Positions 11,942 to 35,276 of a stretch of DNA of 64,000 nt are shown here, piece by piece; position 1 is the stretch's first letter; every line of letters begins with the position of its first letter. The stretch is taken from NCBI RefSeq assembly GCF_018448905.1, contig NZ_RCWA01000018.1, positions 18,796 to 82,795 of the forward strand, given 5' to 3'. Under the pieces are notes generated by a model. That model worked only from the letters and a program-made list of their open reading frames with translations, did no database searches and was not told where the DNA came from. This stretch comes from Photorhabdus heterorhabditis. Its GTDB lineage: Bacteria > Pseudomonadota > Gammaproteobacteria > Enterobacterales > Enterobacteriaceae. The translations under genes were made by a program, and so were the position numbers.

Positions 11942-12212
11942 TATACCCGTTATCTTTCAAGTTGCCTCTTTGTTGGCTGCACCACTCACTCACCCTGGTC
12001 ACATAATTATCTATACCCTTCATCTTTCAAGCTGCTGCTTTGTTGGCTGCGTTCACTTACCCCAGTCACATAGTTATCCAGTCACATAGTTATCTATGCT
12101 CCTGGGGATGCGTTCTCTTGCCGCCGCACTGCAACTTGAAATCTATTGGGTATATGCTCCCGGGGATTCGCTCCCTTGCCGTCGCAATGCATCTTGAAAT
12201 CTATTGGGTATA
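11942..12212. repeat. ERIC element split by a second ERIC
   Basis: The outer ERIC begins TATACCCGTTATCTTTCAAG at 11942 and ends with ATTGGGTATA at 12212. Its centre, which in other copies reads CACATAGTTATCTATGCTCC, is interrupted at the TA by a complete second ERIC (12012-12154) with TA on both sides. It fills the space between cheW and the Tsr-like receptor, downstream of cheW. Confidence 0.9.
12012..12154. repeat. Inner ERIC element inserted at a TA in an older ERIC
   Basis: 143-base ERIC copy bounded by TATACCC and GGGTATA. It carries an internal tandem duplication of a 16-base block (CAGTCACATAGTTATC) near 12063-12094. The flanking TA duplication is the target-site pattern reported for ERIC elements. 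Confidence 0.88.
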
Positions 12213-12222
12213 AGTTTGACAA

Positions 12223-16834: not shown

Positions 16835-17416
16835 TCACATTGCGCGCTGAGCAAGTCCATCCAGCAGTTGTGAATTAGTATCGGCAGATTGAGAGGAAAG
16901 TTTACGTTTTTTTACTGCACGTGATGGTGGTTGGCAAAGGCTACAAACAAAGCTATTTACAGGTTGATGAGCATGGGTAATAAAAGTTCCTCCGCAAGTA
17001 CGGCATTGTGAAGGTTGCAACATACCACTGTCCACAAAACGTACCAAAGTCCAAGCACGAGTCAGTGCCAAAACAGGTGCGTCCCCTGCTATAGGAGGAC
17101 ATTGTTCAAGATAGAGCCGATAAGCTTTAACAACTGCCTCTACACCATCACAATAACCACTCTTGAGTAAAAAGCGATAAGCATTGTAGAACATTGATGA
17201 GTGAATATTCTGTTCCCAAGTCATAAACCAATCTGTTGAAAAAGGCAGCATCCCTTTGGGCGGGGGACTTCCTCTCAATTCTTTATAAAGCTTAATTAAT
17301 CGCCCTCTGCTCAGTTGTGTTTCACTTTCAAGCATTTGTAACCGCGCGCCCAAAGTGATGAGTTCCATTGCAAGCTGTATATCCTTCGCTTCTTGAACTA
17401 TACTTTTCCCGGCCAT
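16835..17416 (-). CDS. flhC: Flagellar master regulator FlhC
   Basis: 193 residues, the usual FlhC length. C138, C141 (CRTC), C158 and C161 (CSLC) form the zinc site typical of FlhC. With FlhD it makes the FlhD4C2 activator of class 2 flagellar genes. It follows flhD by 2 bases. Its 3' end contains a FliA-type promoter that points at motA. Confidence 0.97.
16878..16904 (-). promoter_or_regulatory. FliA (sigma-28) promoter for motA, inside flhC
   Basis: On the minus strand TAAACTTT (16904-16897), an 11-base spacer, then GCCGATAC (16885-16878). This matches the sigma-28 consensus at 14 of 16 positions. It lies in the last 70 bases of flhC, about 180 bases before motA, and would let the motor and chemotaxis genes be transcribed as class 3 genes apart from flhDC. 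Confidence 0.75.
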
Positions 17417-17418
17417 CT

Positions 17419-17769
17419 CTATGCTCTTTTCTTCACTGAAGTATCGTCTTTCGAAGATAACTGCTGAAATAAATGAGTAGATAACAAAATGCCTGTATGT
17501 ATTTGTTGCAAATCATCTACCCGAGATTCCCTGGTAAGCTGCTGAATAGTTTCACTGTTTTCGAACCGGAAATTACAGACTAATTGATTAGTCTCGGCGA
17601 GCTTTACCAACTGAGGTAATGTCAATTCAGACAACGTATCAGCCATAGAATCGCTAATACCTAAACGGAACATCGCTGATGCTTTTTCATGGTTAATTAA
17701 TCGCTGAGCTAAAAGCAGATACGATAAATTTATGTCATAAATATGTTTGAGCAATTCAACCGTACTCAT
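17419..17769 (-). CDS. flhD: Flagellar master regulator FlhD
   Basis: 116 residues, all helical, with [20 protein letters not shown] at the start, the FlhD hallmark. It pairs with FlhC. First gene of the block, preceded by a very long gene-free AT-rich region that should contain its promoter and regulator sites. In Photorhabdus and Xenorhabdus flhDC also governs haemolysin, lipase and virulence functions (known for the genus, not shown here). Confidence 0.96.
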
Positions 17770-19690
17770 TTCTCTATCCCGTCCGATTACATTAAAAAAT
17801 CAGTTTAGTGTTCGAAAAACCACTCGTGACAAAATTCCTAAAATAGCTTAGGGATTAATAATCTCTCACATAACTAAAATATACAGGCTTAGTCAGAGTA
17901 GTAACCATCCTTTGTATTACTTTTGATTCGTCCAACTTCAAAAATATTACGGTAGTGAGTTGCAAAAGTATTATTGCGTTACCTGATATAACATTTTTTA
18001 CTGTCGATTAAGAATATTCTTAATGCAAGACAACTTTACTCCTGAATCATCAACTTATACAACGGAAAGAGGCCGCCATTTTAAATACTATGTGACATGA
18101 CTCACAAAAATAAAGTCTTTTAATATGTATTTAATCGATGAATTGCTCATTAACTATTCAAACAATTAAATAAAATCCGAAATCCCAATTTTAATAAGTT
18201 AAATTATCTAAATAAAAATATTAGATATATTTTTTGATTTTATACGATCTATTAAACTTATAAATTTAAAATAACGATAAAAAATCCTACCCTTAGTCAA
18301 ACAATCGATAAAAAAGCCAGTTTTATCTCCAGGTAACAAGTGTAAACAATAATCTTATTCTGGGATCTGACATCTCCATTTACACGATAAAACTGATTAA
18401 ATTTATGTAAAATTTCGTTACAAAAAAGATGCTGGTATGATCACTTTTAGTTTAGATTTGTACTTTTTTCAACCTCAAGGCTTAACTAAAAATGCGTACC
18501 ACCATTCACAGATAACACTAACCATACAAAAATAGCATAAAATACAGTAAGATAATGAATAAAAAAACAACTACAGTAGCATTTCATTGCTGACATAGTA
18601 ACCAATATCTAGCATAGAGATAATCCCAAAAATCAATCCATTTTGTTTCATTACAGTCCAATCACCAGAAAAAATCATTAAAAAAACTTATCAAAAATCA
18701 TATTTTTTAATGTCATTATATGCAAAATACTTTTGTTAATTACTTTACCCTTTTCACCTTTAATTTTCATTTTTCATTATAACTCATTAGTTAAATTTAC
18801 ACATTATCTATATATATATTTTAAAAACATTAGGTATTTTAAATAAATTTCGATTATTTATTAGCCTATGGCCCATTTTAAAATGCTATTAAAACACATA
18901 ATAATAGAAATAAAAATTTTCAAGCCACATAAATATATAACCTCATCAAATGAAAATCATAAATGGCATCACCATTCTTTATAAAATTCAATAAAAATAT
19001 AATTCATACATTAATTTTCATATAAATAATATAAGTCATTTCAGAATTCATGTCCTTATGATACAAATTAAATAAAATACTAAAAGATATTTTTCCTACT
19101 TTTCATTATTTCATATAATATTTACGACTCTCATCCCAAAAATATTTTTTATACGTGTAAAAAACACAAATAAGGTTGCTATTAATGGATATCATAGATT
19201 TCATTTTTTAAAATCATAATTACGGATAACATAGTTAATTGAGATTTATTGCAAAAATAGCCAACAGTAATAGAATGATAAGAAACCCCAATACCATTCT
19301 TTACCAGAGAAATAATGTTAATAATCATTATTAATAAAAATACCATGATATTTTTATAAAAAAGATGAGAAAAAATATGATTTTGAGTAAAAATTTATTT
19401 TCCCATATAAATAGTAATGATAATTTTTCAAACAATTATAACTGCTCATCAAACATAGAAAATAATGCAGCAACTGATTACAGCCTCATCTCATCACAGA
19501 AAATATTCTCAGGGCAAAAACTCCATACTCATTAGTTCAACAAACAGGATGCAAGAAATATAGATATCGAGAATCATTATCAGTTATGTAACCAATAACA
19601 CTGGAAATTCCATTGCAGTTTGGATAAAAGACACGCCTCTCATGCACAATATATAAACAGTAAATTCTTGAAAAAATCACCATTTAATAC
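17770..19690. other. Very AT-rich gene-free region upstream of flhDC
   Basis: About 1.9 kb without a supported gene on either strand. The part next to flhD (17770-18400) should carry the flhDC promoter and long leader. CAGTTTTATC near 18322 and GATAAAACTG near 18388 form a distant inverted repeat. The rest is low-complexity AT-rich DNA of the kind bound by H-NS; no promoter can be assigned with confidence. Confidence 0.6.
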
Positions 19691-19699
19691 ACTAGATTG

Positions 19700-21000
19700 G
19701 TAGAATCGCAACTCAAAAAACAACATTTTTTACTTAAATAATGCATAAAATCAACATATATATCTATATCACGAAAATCAAACAAAATCTTTTTATCAAT
19801 ACCACAAACATCTAATATTTTTAGAATCTCATTTATAAAATTTTATCAAGTGCATTTTATCTCAATGGTAAAGAAGGCTACGAAATATCATACATTAGAT
19901 CTTGTACTAGTAAATGAATGTTCCCCATTGACAAAAATGGAATAAAGGTACCAGCAAAAAACATTACCAAGTCTGAACTTACCGTTATATTCAAGTAGTT
20001 GATGATATTTCTATTCGTCTATCTTCCCTTAACTATCCAGCTCATCTAATCCTCTCAAATTTTTATCAAATCAGGTAATATCTATCGCTTTTTCTGATAT
20101 ATCTGTACTTGTACTAACAAAAACTCCAACATCAGGGTATCTCAATACCTCAGTGTCATTAACGTCATCACCAGAAAAACTAACTATATGCCTGTTATTT
20201 TATAACATAGGGTTCTTACAATACGCAGTTTGTTAAATATCGATCTTATTCCATTTCACTTTTCAGGGTTTCAGCGCACATCGGCTCAGTTTGTTAGGTT
20301 GTTAAAATAGCTTTGGCATCTAATCCTAGATCATGACAAATTATGACAGTAATAGCAGAATTATCTTCGGTAAGAACTTTTGCTATTACGCCATTCTCTC
20401 TTAATGCAGAAATAGCAGAGGCTACTCTATTCTCTATCAGATCAAAAAAAATCCGTTCCCCTTGTAATATCGCCAATCTTTCTCATCAGAAAGCAACAAA
20501 TGTTTCCACTTTATCATAGGATAAATATCGAGCTGATAAAAATTAATACTCTGAAATCTTGTCTGATAGTAACCATTAGCTAGTACCATTATTTTTTCAC
20601 GGCGTTCTCCATCAAGCAGAATTATTATCTATTTTACTCTTATATAAGAACAAACTTAGATCATTTCCTCTACTATACCTTTGCAGCTTAATTGATATTT
20701 CCTCTAAAGATCCCGCACTGGAATAGATAACCAATACCGAACAAAATAAAATGTCAACTCATCAATTTTTCTGTACCCGGGCATAATAATACTGCATCGT
20801 TACCCACTTTTCTTGTAAAACCATCAATCAATAATACCAATACGAAATTATTTCCAGTATAAAGCGAATTGATAATCAACGACCGCCACGATAAAATTAG
20901 CCTGAAATCTACCACTAACAATCAATAGACTTAGCCATAAAAATAATAACCACTGGACAGCATCACTGTTCATATTTCACCCAAGAAGTAGCAAGAACAT
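19700..21000 (-). pseudogene. mgtB: Decayed Mg2+-transporting P-type ATPase (MgtB/MgtA type)
   Basis: Reading the minus strand across frames gives consecutive pieces of an MgtA/MgtB ATPase in the right order. YRKIDELTFYFVRYWLSIPV (near 20770-20715) matches the DELPFDFVRRRLSVVV region; LSCKGIVEEM (near 20685) matches LICKGAVEEM; ISALRENGVIAKVLTEDNS (near 20400-20345) matches the KVLTGDN region; VSFSGDDVNDTEVLRYPDVGVFV (20200-20125, given here in pieces of the GDGINDAPAL block) follows; then IHLLVQDLMYDIS (near 19920-19880) matches IHLLIQNLMYDIS. Stops and frameshifts separate them. The N-terminal third, including the DKTGTL phosphorylation site, is missing. It lies directly downstream of intact mgtC, the mgtCB order of Salmonella, so it is a dead partner gene. 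End points are approximate. Confidence 0.9.
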
Positions 21001-21033
21001 AATATTGCCTGACACAATATATTTGATAGGTAT

Positions 21034-21062
21034 TTAGGGTTGGGGTTGGGGTTGGGCTTGGG
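21034..21062 (+). repeat. G-run tract, possible G-quadruplex
   Basis: Five runs of three or four G separated by TT or CTT (GGG-TT-GGGG-TT-GGGG-TT-GGG-CTT-GGG) in otherwise AT-rich DNA between the ATPase remnant and mgtC. The spacing fits a G-quadruplex-forming motif. It may also be a slippage-expanded hexamer (TTGGGG). No function is shown. Confidence 0.6.
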
Positions 21063-21297
21063 ATTTGCAATACTATGACTTAACCACTATTGGCTTGATC
21101 ACAGGTTTCACCGCTTGCTCGAAAGGTATTCTTATCAAGACTTTAACAAATTACCTAACCACAATCGCTCTGATGATGACATCTATAAAATTTGCTTTCT
21201 TTGATTGTTACCAATATCACCAACATTTTAATAAAACCTACTGATGAGGTATTCATCTTATTATTAGAGAAAAAGCTCCAAATAGTTTCTTAATTAC

Positions 21298-21334
21298 GCG
21301 TTGCCTAACAGAGAAAAGACTTAGTAGGCAACGC
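21298..21334. terminator. Perfect 10-bp inverted repeat downstream of mgtC
   Basis: GCGTTGCCTA at 21298-21307 pairs exactly with TAGGCAACGC at 21325-21334 around a 17-base loop, about 90 bases after the mgtC stop. No T-run follows on the minus strand. It could end mgtC transcription or be a relic of the mgtC-mgtB spacer. Confidence 0.4.
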
Positions 21335-21426
21335 TCCATTTGTTTCATATAACAAAAGGCAATTCATCAACAATGACACTTTTTTTAGACTAAATTATTA
21401 TTACCTTATATCAATAATTTTCAGAC

Positions 21427-22131
21427 CTATAGTTCAGAAGCAATTTTCCAGTTTATTGAGCTAACACTCTTTTCCAGACTCATGCGACAAACAATCGCTT
21501 CTATCTCTTTTTGCTCAGTCGATGTTGCTAATATTTCAATACACACTTCGAGTTTTTCAGGTTGAATCATATCAATGAAACTCAGTGATTGTAATCTCAC
21601 TGCCACTCCATTTAGAGCTTGCAACACTAAAGTTCTAACCAGAATTCCGTCATGACTATCGCATACCACGTGAATTCTATAACACCGTGCCAAATCAGTG
21701 ACCTGTTGTTTAGGTTGTAAATTAATACGCTGAGCAGCTTCACGTAATAATATATTTGCGCAAAGAATAATAACCGTTGCTATTGCAGCCAGCCAATATT
21801 GCCCAAGACCACATAACACACCAATTCCGGCAGAACACCATAAAGTTGCAGCAGTATTTAACCCACGGATATTCATACCTTCTCGCATAATGACACCCGC
21901 GCCCAGGAAACCAATACCTGAAACAACCTGAGCAGCAATACGACCAGCACTATCTGGTGAAGTTGTTATCGAACTAAGAATAAAAACGGCAGCACCAGTC
22001 GCAACTAATGCATTCGTTCTTAAACCTGCCATACGCTGACGCCATTGACGTTCTGCGCCAATTAATGCACCAAAGCACATAGCTGATAATAAATGGAAGA
22101 CAAAAGGAGTTATTAACACGACATTCTCCAT
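21427..22131 (-). CDS. mgtC: MgtC family virulence membrane protein
   Basis: 234 residues. The N-terminal half has four or five membrane helices and is almost identical in type to Salmonella MgtC (GALIGAERQWRQRMAGLRTN, SGIGFLGAGVIMREG, GLNTAATLWCSAGIG). The C-terminal third is a soluble ACT-like domain. MgtC supports growth at low Mg2+ and inside host cells and inhibits the F-type ATP synthase in Salmonella. The start is uncertain: the ATG at 22129-22131 has no ribosome site because an ERIC element ends 2 bases upstream, whereas a GTG at 22117-22119 has GGAG 6 bases before it. Its usual partner mgtB is present only as a remnant downstream. Confidence 0.95.
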   Translation of the reverse strand: MENVVLITPFVFHLLSAMCFGALIGAERQWRQRMAGLRTNALVATGAAVFILSSITTSPDSAGRIAAQVVSGIGFLGAGVIMREGMNIRGLNTAATLWCSAGIGVLCGLGQYWLAAIATVIILCANILLREAAQRINLQPKQQVTDLARCYRIHVVCDSHDGILVRTLVLQALNGVAVRLQSLSFIDMIQPEKLEVCIEILATSTEQKEIEAIVCRMSLEKSVSSINWKIASEL

Positions 22132-22132
22132 A

Positions 22133-22270
22133 TATACCCGTTATCTTTCAAGTTGCCTCTTTGTTGGCTGCACTCACTCACCCCGGTCACATAGTTATCT
22201 ATGTGTTATCTATGCTCCCGGGGATTCGCTCCTTTGCCATCGCGATGCATCTTGAAATCCATTGGGTATA
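22133..22270. repeat. ERIC element abutting the mgtC start
   Basis: 138-base ERIC copy with TATACCCGTTATCTTTCAAG at one end and ATTGGGTATA at the other. Near its centre GTTATCTAT is repeated. It ends 1 base from the mgtC ATG, so the mgtC mRNA leader must run through it and would contain its long hairpin. Confidence 0.9.
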
Positions 22271-22666
22271 ATTAAATGGATAAATAATCATGTGCATTTA
22301 TTTTGCACACAGAAATTTGTGCCGAATGTTTAATTCAGCATTATTTTCTGTACATACCTGGAGGTAATAAGGTGTAAATGTATAACAGCATAATAAAAAC
22401 TCAATATAATATTCTTCGCTACTCTACCGAGTACCAAATAACAATGCTTTTTAGGTAAGTACAGCTCAGATATTTTGAGTGGTACCGCCCGCCTTGTTTG
22501 GCAAGCAGCAAATCGGGAGGAAATGAACAGCTTGCCGTGTTATTTTTTATTTAATCGAAAACTTTGACTGTCCAATGATAATTTCTCCAATGAAATTTGG
22601 ATGAAGTATAATCAGGGGTAGTTAATAAGTAAAGGGAATATTACTATAACAAAGAAAAACAACAAA
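22271..22666. other. Intergenic region between the mgtC-proximal ERIC and the cold-shock gene
   Basis: No gene seen. It should contain the mgtC promoter on the minus strand. I looked for a PhoP box (paired GTTTA half-sites) and found only a single GTTTA near 22328, so PhoP control cannot be claimed from the sequence. Confidence 0.5.
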
Positions 22667-27657: not shown

Positions 27658-27784
27658 TATACCCGTTATCTTTCAAGTTGCTTCTTTGTTGGCTACACTC
27701 ACTCCCCCCGGTCACAGAGTTACCTACGCTCCTGGGGATTCGCTCCCTTGCCGTTGCGATTCATCTTGAAATCCATTGGGTATA
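27658..27784. repeat. ERIC element between pyrC and bssS
   Basis: 127-base ERIC copy, TATACCCGTTATCTTTCAAG at the left end and ATTGGGTATA at the right. It lies in the 3' region of pyrC, where ERIC hairpins are usually found. Confidence 0.9.
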
Positions 27785-27943
27785 GTTATCAACCTACCAA
27801 CAAGCCGGATAATAATTCCTAACAAAAAACCTTCTTACTTTTATTAAAAAGCATATACTAATAATAACTCATTCAGGAATGAGGTAGTTTGCTCTTAGTC
27901 AATGATATTAATAATTAATGCGGCGATCTGATTAGGAGGTTTT

Positions 27944-35153: not shown

Positions 35154-35276
35154 TATACCCATTATCTTTCAAGTTGCCTCTTTGTTGGCTGCACTCACCC
35201 CAGTCACATAGTTAGCTATGCTCCTGGGGATTCGCTCCCTTGCCGTCGCGATCCATCTTGAAATCCATTGGGTATA
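35154..35276. repeat. ERIC element upstream of csaA
   Basis: 123-base ERIC copy, TATACCCATTATCTTTCAAG to ATTGGGTATA, the shortest and closest to standard ERIC of the set. It lies between csaA and the small exported protein gene. Confidence 0.9.

What the first reader, a model, noticed from the sequence alone, without database searches (positions are those of the whole stretch)
19700..21000. mgtB remains as a pseudogene behind an intact mgtC
The minus strand carries successive blocks of an MgtA/MgtB ATPase in correct order but with stops, frameshifts and a lost N-terminal third. Salmonella has mgtCB as an operon. Here the transporter died while mgtC is kept, which separates the virulence and transport functions by natural loss. 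The 1.3 kb would otherwise be called empty.
Basis: partly seen in the sequence, partly recalled or inferred. Interest (0 to 1): 0.75.

Follow-up and report, generated by a model that had tools for sequence, protein, structure and literature searches.

The report
Dead magnesium pump behind living mgtC
The stretch is the decayed back half of a magnesium-pump gene (mgtB) that died before these Photorhabdus-type species split while its neighbour mgtC stayed under strong selection; the loss is already in print, but a 55-base piece inside the dead gene is unexpectedly well conserved.

Summary
Confirmed, and the core is already in print. Window 19461-20775 (minus strand) holds MgtB residues 435-883 in order, in shifting frames with stops, behind an intact mgtC. 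The front half, with the catalytic DKTGT site, is gone. The relic is in 13 of 13 genomes held for the genus, with no MgtA/MgtB over the curated cut-off in any; mgtC is open in all 13 (median dN/dS 0.08). Differences among the 13 relics are flat over the old codon positions, so the gene died before they split. PMC3207850 (2011) already marks P. luminescens mgtB as a pseudogene. In Xenorhabdus, 7 of 30 genomes keep intact mgtB, all with full-length mgtC; 9 have full-length mgtC with mgtB broken; 14 have damaged or undetected mgtC and no intact mgtB. Most relics lost the front half and kept the rear. New: a 55-column block (20612-20667) in the genus's relic changed 5 times where about 56 changes are expected, differs from intact mgtB, and is as conserved as the flhDC upstream region. 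It may be a promoter or operator born in the dead gene; untested.

The parts
21427..22131 (-). mgtC, intact, 234 codons
   Evidence: NCBIfam NF011912 317.7 bits, cut-off 255; open in 13 of 13 genus genomes; median dN/dS 0.079 over 78 pairs
19461..20775 (-). mgtB relic: MgtB residues 435-883 in order, in shifting frames, with stops
   Evidence: tblastn pieces; HMM pieces; 20 stops in 438 aligned codons
20776..21426 (-). interval between mgtC and the relic; no MgtB homology detected; poorly alignable among the 13 genomes
20612..20667 (-). E1: hyperconserved block (55 ungapped columns) inside the relic; candidate promoter/operator (TTGTTC-N18-GATAAT read by eye)
   Evidence: 5 Fitch steps against about 56 expected; 0 of 5000 permutations reach it; differs from intact Xenorhabdus mgtB; the only strong match in each of 13 genomes
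19559..19598 (-). E2: weaker second conserved block in the relic
   Evidence: 14 steps in 40 columns, 8 of 5000 permutations reach it
22132..22640 (-). mgtC 5' region: conserved leader with a promoter-like site 22633-22605 and a sub-threshold mgtC_leader match 22598-22476, interrupted in this genome by an ERIC-like repeat
16835..17769 (-). flhD and flhC, the next genes downstream of the relic
   Evidence: NCBIfam FlhD 151.7 bits and FlhC 288.1 bits, both over cut-off

Best explanation
It is an old pseudogene of mgtB, the Mg2+-importing P-type ATPase that follows mgtC in the ancestral mgtCB operon. Shown: the front half of the gene (about 430 codons, with the catalytic aspartate motif) is missing and the back half has decayed; no coding constraint is detectable among the 13 genus relics, so death came before they split; mgtC beside it is still strongly constrained. 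Inferred: MgtC's own function is needed without the pump (in Salmonella MgtC is a virulence regulator and not a transporter: recalled), and CorA and an MgtE-like protein cover Mg2+ uptake. Inferred: the front of a broken gene is removed first because it is the part still translated from the mgtC message and therefore costly, while the untranslated rear is harmless and lingers. One 55-column piece of the rear has since been held almost unchanged, perhaps as a cis-acting regulatory site.
For: Relic in 13 of 13 genus genomes, 0 of 13 with MgtA/B over cut-off. mgtC open in 13 of 13. Intact mgtB directly behind mgtC in named Xenorhabdus sp. BG5, Yersinia proxima, Serratia proteamaculans, Providencia and Budvicia records and in 15 of 20 fetched family genomes. 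Codon-position differences among relics 0.209/0.205/0.206, but 0.350/0.319/0.523 against intact mgtB. Two stop sites shared by 13 of 13. mgtC median dN/dS 0.079. Coverage of residues 1-390 is 0.00 and of residues 391-899 is 0.79-0.90 in the 13 relics; DKTGT at residue 371 lies in the missing part. From the end of the mgtC match to about residue 420 is roughly 210-720 nt, against about 1470 nt in Xenorhabdus BG5, so length is really missing. CorA over cut-off in the own genome; an uninterrupted MgtE-like match in 13 of 13, below the family cut-off.
Against: The relic has diverged only 0.64 times as much as four-fold sites of mgtC (median ratio, E1 included), slower than expected of a strictly neutral sequence; base composition (about 33% GC) or partial constraint could be the reason. 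The front-first model is not proved: the number of independent deletions is uncertain because the flhD-region tree is weakly supported and its outgroups fell in wrong places, and two young Xenorhabdus relics keep most of the front half (L158 0.63, L186 0.80).
Confidence: 0.93

Rival explanations
1. Part of the relic has a new job: block E1 is a promoter or operator that arose inside the dead gene, perhaps driving a non-coding RNA toward flhDC. (This can be true together with the best explanation.)
For: 5 changes in 55 columns against about 56 expected; 0 of 5000 permutations reach it with the interval's own tree, with an mgtC tree, and with 20-column blocks shuffled. 19 steps in 72 columns (0.26) equals the flhDC upstream region (0.262). 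The sequence differs from intact mgtB and from the Xenorhabdus relics. Exact 47-mer in 9 of 13 genomes.
Against: The -35-like hexamer is poor and the consensus scan did not list this pair of hexamers; the palindrome is changed in two genomes and the -10-like hexamer in one; no convincing RNA structure downstream; no expression data.
Confidence: 0.45
2. The C-terminal half still makes a protein (short product or programmed frameshifts).
For: Homology to 79-90% of residues 391-899 survives in all 13 relics.
Against: Flat substitution over codon positions, 11-20 in-frame stops per relic, shifting frames.
Confidence: 0.02
3. Sequencing or assembly errors break a gene that is really intact.
For: The window genome is a 226-contig draft.
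Against: The front half is missing in all 13 assemblies, two of which are one contig.
Confidence: 0.01
4. The losses in Xenorhabdus are not many: one old loss shared with Photorhabdus was followed by re-acquisition of mgtB in one Xenorhabdus clade.
For: All six intact genomes placed on the flhD-region tree (the seventh, G024, was not placed) fall, with two relic-bearing genomes, in one clade of support 99 nested among relic-bearing lineages.
Against: Xenorhabdus relics range from 32 to 87% mean identity to intact MgtB and have different deletion ends, which fits several deaths at different times; the relic of L158, outside that clade, is still 85% identical.
Confidence: 0.2

Closest known systems
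Photorhabdus luminescens mgtB pseudogene (PMC3207850, Table 2; passages read)
   Same: The same gene in the genus that the window most likely belongs to: mgtB 'P', mgtA '-'
   Different: There a single table entry; here the 13 genomes held, with relative time of death, extent, selection on mgtC and block E1
Sodalis glossinidius mgtCB pseudo-operon (PMC3207850; passages read)
   Same: mgtB broken by frameshifts in the mgtCB unit of an insect associate
   Different: There a canonical PhoP box was reported upstream; here the best matches in the Photorhabdus-type leaders have 2 mismatches, and about half of the gene is missing
Salmonella mgtCBR operon (PMC3641672; title and start of abstract in a listing)
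   Same: Gene order mgtC-mgtB behind a long leader
   Different: mgtB dead here; mgtR not looked for
Costly young pseudogenes removed by selection (Kuo and Ochman, PMC2916853; abstract and one section read)
   Same: The cost of still-expressed broken genes would explain why the translated front goes first
   Different: Here the rear half persists across a genus rather than vanishing

Membership tests
MgtA/MgtB Mg2+ P-type ATPase (TIGR01524), as a working gene | Score over the curated cut-off (610.75 bits) | tested here: not met
   Best piece 70.8 bits
MgtA/MgtB Mg2+ P-type ATPase (TIGR01524), as a working gene | Continuous reading frame of about 900 codons | tested here: not met
   Pieces in shifting frames, 20 stops in 438 aligned codons
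MgtA/MgtB Mg2+ P-type ATPase (TIGR01524), as a working gene | Phosphorylation motif DKTGT (motif recalled) | tested here: not met
   Residue 371 in the intact reference; window homology starts at residue 435
mgtB pseudogene | Colinear homology at the syntenic place behind mgtC | tested here: met
mgtB pseudogene | No codon-position bias in substitutions since death | tested here: met
   0.209/0.205/0.206; 0.228/0.222/0.220 without the E1 region
MgtC (NF011912) | Score over the curated cut-off, open frame | tested here: met
   317.7 bits against 255
PhoP-regulated mgtC promoter | PhoP box (direct repeat; consensus recalled) | tested here: inconclusive
   In the 13 genus leaders the best matches have 2 mismatches, none fewer; of five other loci scanned, L058 and L077 have perfect boxes and L082, L165 and L057 none with up to 2 mismatches
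Salmonella-type mgtC leader (RF02887) | Score over the gathering cut-off (48 bits) | tested here: not met
   21.4 bits, E 0.96 in the window; 27.8 bits, E 0.32 in L077; none listed at E 0.5 for L021, L025, L030, L082
sigma-70 promoter (for E1) | Transcription start in vivo | not testable with these tools
   no expression data

The most novel reading that the evidence does not exclude
A dead transporter gene has been partly re-used: after mgtB died in the ancestor of this genus, a 55-bp piece of its former coding sequence became a cis-regulatory element (promoter or operator, pointing toward flhDC), was fixed, and has since been held as tightly as the flhDC control region, which may also explain why the relic was never deleted.
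Probability: 0.4. Interest if true: 0.6.

Novelty: already known. Interest (0 to 1): 0.35.

Why it matters
The genus and Xenorhabdus give a natural series in which mgtC outlives mgtB. Among the 43 genomes examined (13 and 30) none has an intact mgtB without a full-length mgtC, which supports a role for MgtC that does not need the pump. The order of loss alone is partly expected, because mgtB is about four times longer. The conserved block in the relic, if functional, would be a clear, testable case of a regulatory element born in a dead bacterial gene.

Tried and rejected
Chance homology: rejected. A fragment of another P-type ATPase: the own genome's other matches lie in uninterrupted frames elsewhere, while the relic is colinear with MgtB at the syntenic place. 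A continuing C-terminal protein: rejected by flat codon positions. RNA structure downstream of E1: 37 predicted pairs, 4 with a change on both sides, weak; 12 of 13 genomes were given (L031 left out), and the stretches I gave were offset from each other. The five-source Rfam search gave no mgtC leader for the three other genus loci given. A phage-collection search gave one 58-base match, inside the ERIC-like repeat upstream of mgtC. Papers PMC2760582 and PMC2717986 hold no word beginning with 'mgt' (term search of the main text). PMC2908699 (passages) gave nothing on Photorhabdus mgtB. A paper search for Photorhabdus small RNA or start-site maps gave nothing that I could use (10 of 1,925 listed).

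Corrections to my notes and dropped rows. Entry 5 says that no PhoP box with 2 or fewer mismatches was found in Photorhabdus; one search lists several with 2, none with fewer. It also gives 22116 for the alternative mgtC start; counting from the sequence gives 22119. Entry 4 says every Xenorhabdus relic lacks most of the N-terminal part; L158 and L186 do not. In one search L173 was grouped with intact mgtC, but its mgtC is shortened to 207 codons, so the counts here treat it as damaged. L161 (rear half beyond its contig end) is left out of the front/rear count. Of the 25 mgtC-bearing genomes, two belong to the genus and three (G043, G116, G138) were not fetched for the mgtB check; one of the 20 fetched (L061) ends too soon to judge. 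Of the 80 named loci only the first 25 (L077-L101) were checked for mgtB. In the dN/dS of Xenorhabdus mgtC with dead mgtB, 25 of 28 pairs were kept (dS above 0 and below 3).

Full report
What is there. Behind an intact mgtC (21427-22131, minus strand) lies DNA that matches the rear half of the Mg2+ pump MgtB in the right order. Against intact Xenorhabdus MgtB the pieces are residues 435-509, 513-609, 631-720 and 685-883 at window 20775-19461, in shifting frames, with 20 stops in 438 aligned codons. The family HMM finds pieces at up to 70.8 bits, far below the cut-off of 610.75. The first 430 or so residues are missing, including the phosphorylation motif at residue 371 of the reference. The interval 20776-21426 shows no MgtB homology. 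In Xenorhabdus BG5 residue 420 lies about 1470 nt beyond mgtC; in the 13 genus genomes the homology begins at residues 404-435 (428 or less in 12), roughly 210-720 nt beyond mgtC, so this is lost length and not failed detection.

Organism. flhD of the window matches named Xenorhabdus records (L082, L084) at 90% identity and Proteus cibi at 87%, the genome has two full-length LuxC-family genes, and it has 5.0 Mb. This is inference. The genus called Xenorhabdus here is that of G024: two of its members have contigs of the same lengths as the named records of Xenorhabdus sp. BG5 (500,362 bases) and X. thuongxuanensis (162,704 bases).

Genus-wide. All 13 genomes searched in the genus have the relic, and 0 of 13 have an MgtA/MgtB over the cut-off. 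mgtC is open in 13 of 13. In mgtC the mean dN is 0.035 and the mean dS 0.433 over 78 pairs, with median dN/dS 0.079. Among the 13 relics, differences per old codon position are 0.209, 0.205 and 0.206; against intact Xenorhabdus mgtB they are 0.350, 0.319 and 0.523. So the gene was coding in the deeper past, and no coding constraint is seen since these species split. Two stop sites are shared by all 13. Against strict neutrality, the relic has diverged 0.64 times as much as four-fold sites in mgtC.

Relatives. In a sample of 149 family genomes 25 have a close mgtC. Of 20 fetched outside the genus, 15 have intact mgtB behind mgtC, four show none, and one contig ends too soon. Among the 25 named loci checked of 80, mgtB is intact behind mgtC in Yersinia proxima, two Providencia, two Serratia proteamaculans, Budvicia aquatica and Xenorhabdus sp. 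BG5; a relic in Xenorhabdus thuongxuanensis; barely detectable in Proteus cibi (two pieces, E 0.001); and not detected in Morganella morganii or Winslowiella arboricola. The more distant ones mostly show none. Keeping mgtC without mgtB is therefore not peculiar to this genus.

Xenorhabdus series. Of 30 genomes, 19 have an mgtC match at E 1e-40 or better; 16 of these are full length and three are damaged (G161, G163, G165). Seven have an uninterrupted mgtB, all with full-length mgtC. Nine have full-length mgtC with a broken mgtB, one of them (G174) seen only to its contig end. The 11 without an mgtC match at that threshold all carry an mgtB relic upstream of flhD, and five of them still show pieces of mgtC. 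None of 30 has intact mgtB without full-length mgtC. Length alone favours mgtB being hit first, so this order is suggestive only. Two sister pairs with dead mgtB have mgtC dN/dS of 0.068 and 0.052.

Front-first erosion. In 13 of 13 genus relics coverage of residues 1-390 is 0.00 and of 391-899 is 0.79-0.90. Of 22 Xenorhabdus relics where both halves could be seen, 20 have front coverage 0.00-0.23; the two exceptions are L158 (0.63) and L186 (0.80), both among the least decayed (85 and 87% mean identity). Rear coverage is 0.65-1.00. L171 is equally little decayed and has already lost the front (0.06). Deletion ends differ: in L158 residue 161 is followed by 297, in L173 and L176 residue 127 by 391-392, in L175 residue 223 by 394, while L164 starts at 373. 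The explanation that I favour is that a broken gene keeps translating its front from the mgtC message, so selection removes that part first; it agrees with the cost argument of Kuo and Ochman (PMC2916853; abstract and one section read). The number of independent events is unsettled, because the flhD-region tree is weakly supported and its outgroups fell in wrong places.

A conserved block in the dead gene. Along the relic the mean is 1.02 Fitch steps per column, but 55 ungapped columns at window 20667-20612 have only 5 steps where about 56 are expected. No permutation of 5000 reached this, whether with the tree of the interval, with an mgtC tree, or with 20-column blocks shuffled. The wider block 20600-20672 has 19 steps in 72 columns (0.26 per column), the same as the flhDC upstream region at 17770-18310 (0.262). 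A weaker block is at 19598-19559 (8 of 5000), and the spacer 18600-19466 has no comparable one. The 91-bp stretch 20590-20680 has one strong match in each of 13 genomes; the next matches are at E 0.018 or worse. It differs from intact Xenorhabdus mgtB and from the Xenorhabdus relics aligned, so its present form probably arose after or around the loss and was then kept. By eye it reads as a minus-strand promoter, TTGTTC-18-GATAAT, with a palindrome in the spacer; but the consensus scan did not list this pair, and the palindrome or the -10-like hexamer is altered in three of 13 genomes. Its function is unknown without expression data.

What is in print. PMC3207850 (passages read) lists P. luminescens mgtB as a pseudogene and mgtA as absent, and describes the Sodalis mgtCB pseudo-operon. 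PMC2266911 (passages read) says instead that P. luminescens shares CorA, MgtA and MgtB with Yersinia; the genome searches here do not support MgtA or MgtB. My searches for Photorhabdus with mgtB, mgtC and pseudogene (searches listed in full, 20 of 50 listed, 15 of 102 listed) showed, by title, start of abstract and the passages named above, no paper with the genus-wide picture or the conserved block; they cover only open-licence full texts.

Noticed in passing
22140-22274: An ERIC-like repeat (name recalled) of about 130 bp sits directly upstream of the mgtC ribosome-binding site in this genome only of the 13; L024 has one elsewhere in its mgtC upstream region. Further copies in the window at about 11949-12213, 27665-27788 and 35162-35276.
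   Followed up: partly
L022:5723-5837, L026:3881-3990, L027:5640-5724: Copies or pieces of the same repeat lie between mgtC and the relic in three other genus genomes, which partly explains the varying interval length.
   Followed up: no
22117-22131: mgtC may start at the fifth codon: the other 12 genomes have ATG there behind a conserved GGAG, this genome has GTG.
   Followed up: no
22476-22633 (minus strand): Conserved mgtC leader with a promoter-like site and a sub-threshold match to the Salmonella mgtC leader that starts near the predicted start site.
   Followed up: partly
19559-19598: Second, weaker conserved block in the relic.
   Followed up: no
17770-18310 and 18445-18565: The flhDC upstream region is conserved at about 0.92-0.99 mean pairwise identity over about 500 bp, with further peaks upstream.
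   Followed up: no
L161, L172, L173, L174, L186: Some Xenorhabdus genomes show mgtC or mgtB caught mid-decay (truncated, internally deleted or broken), useful for timing the losses.
   Followed up: partly
21037-21062: Short G-rich near-repeat (units like GGTTGG) in the interval between mgtC and the relic.
   Followed up: no
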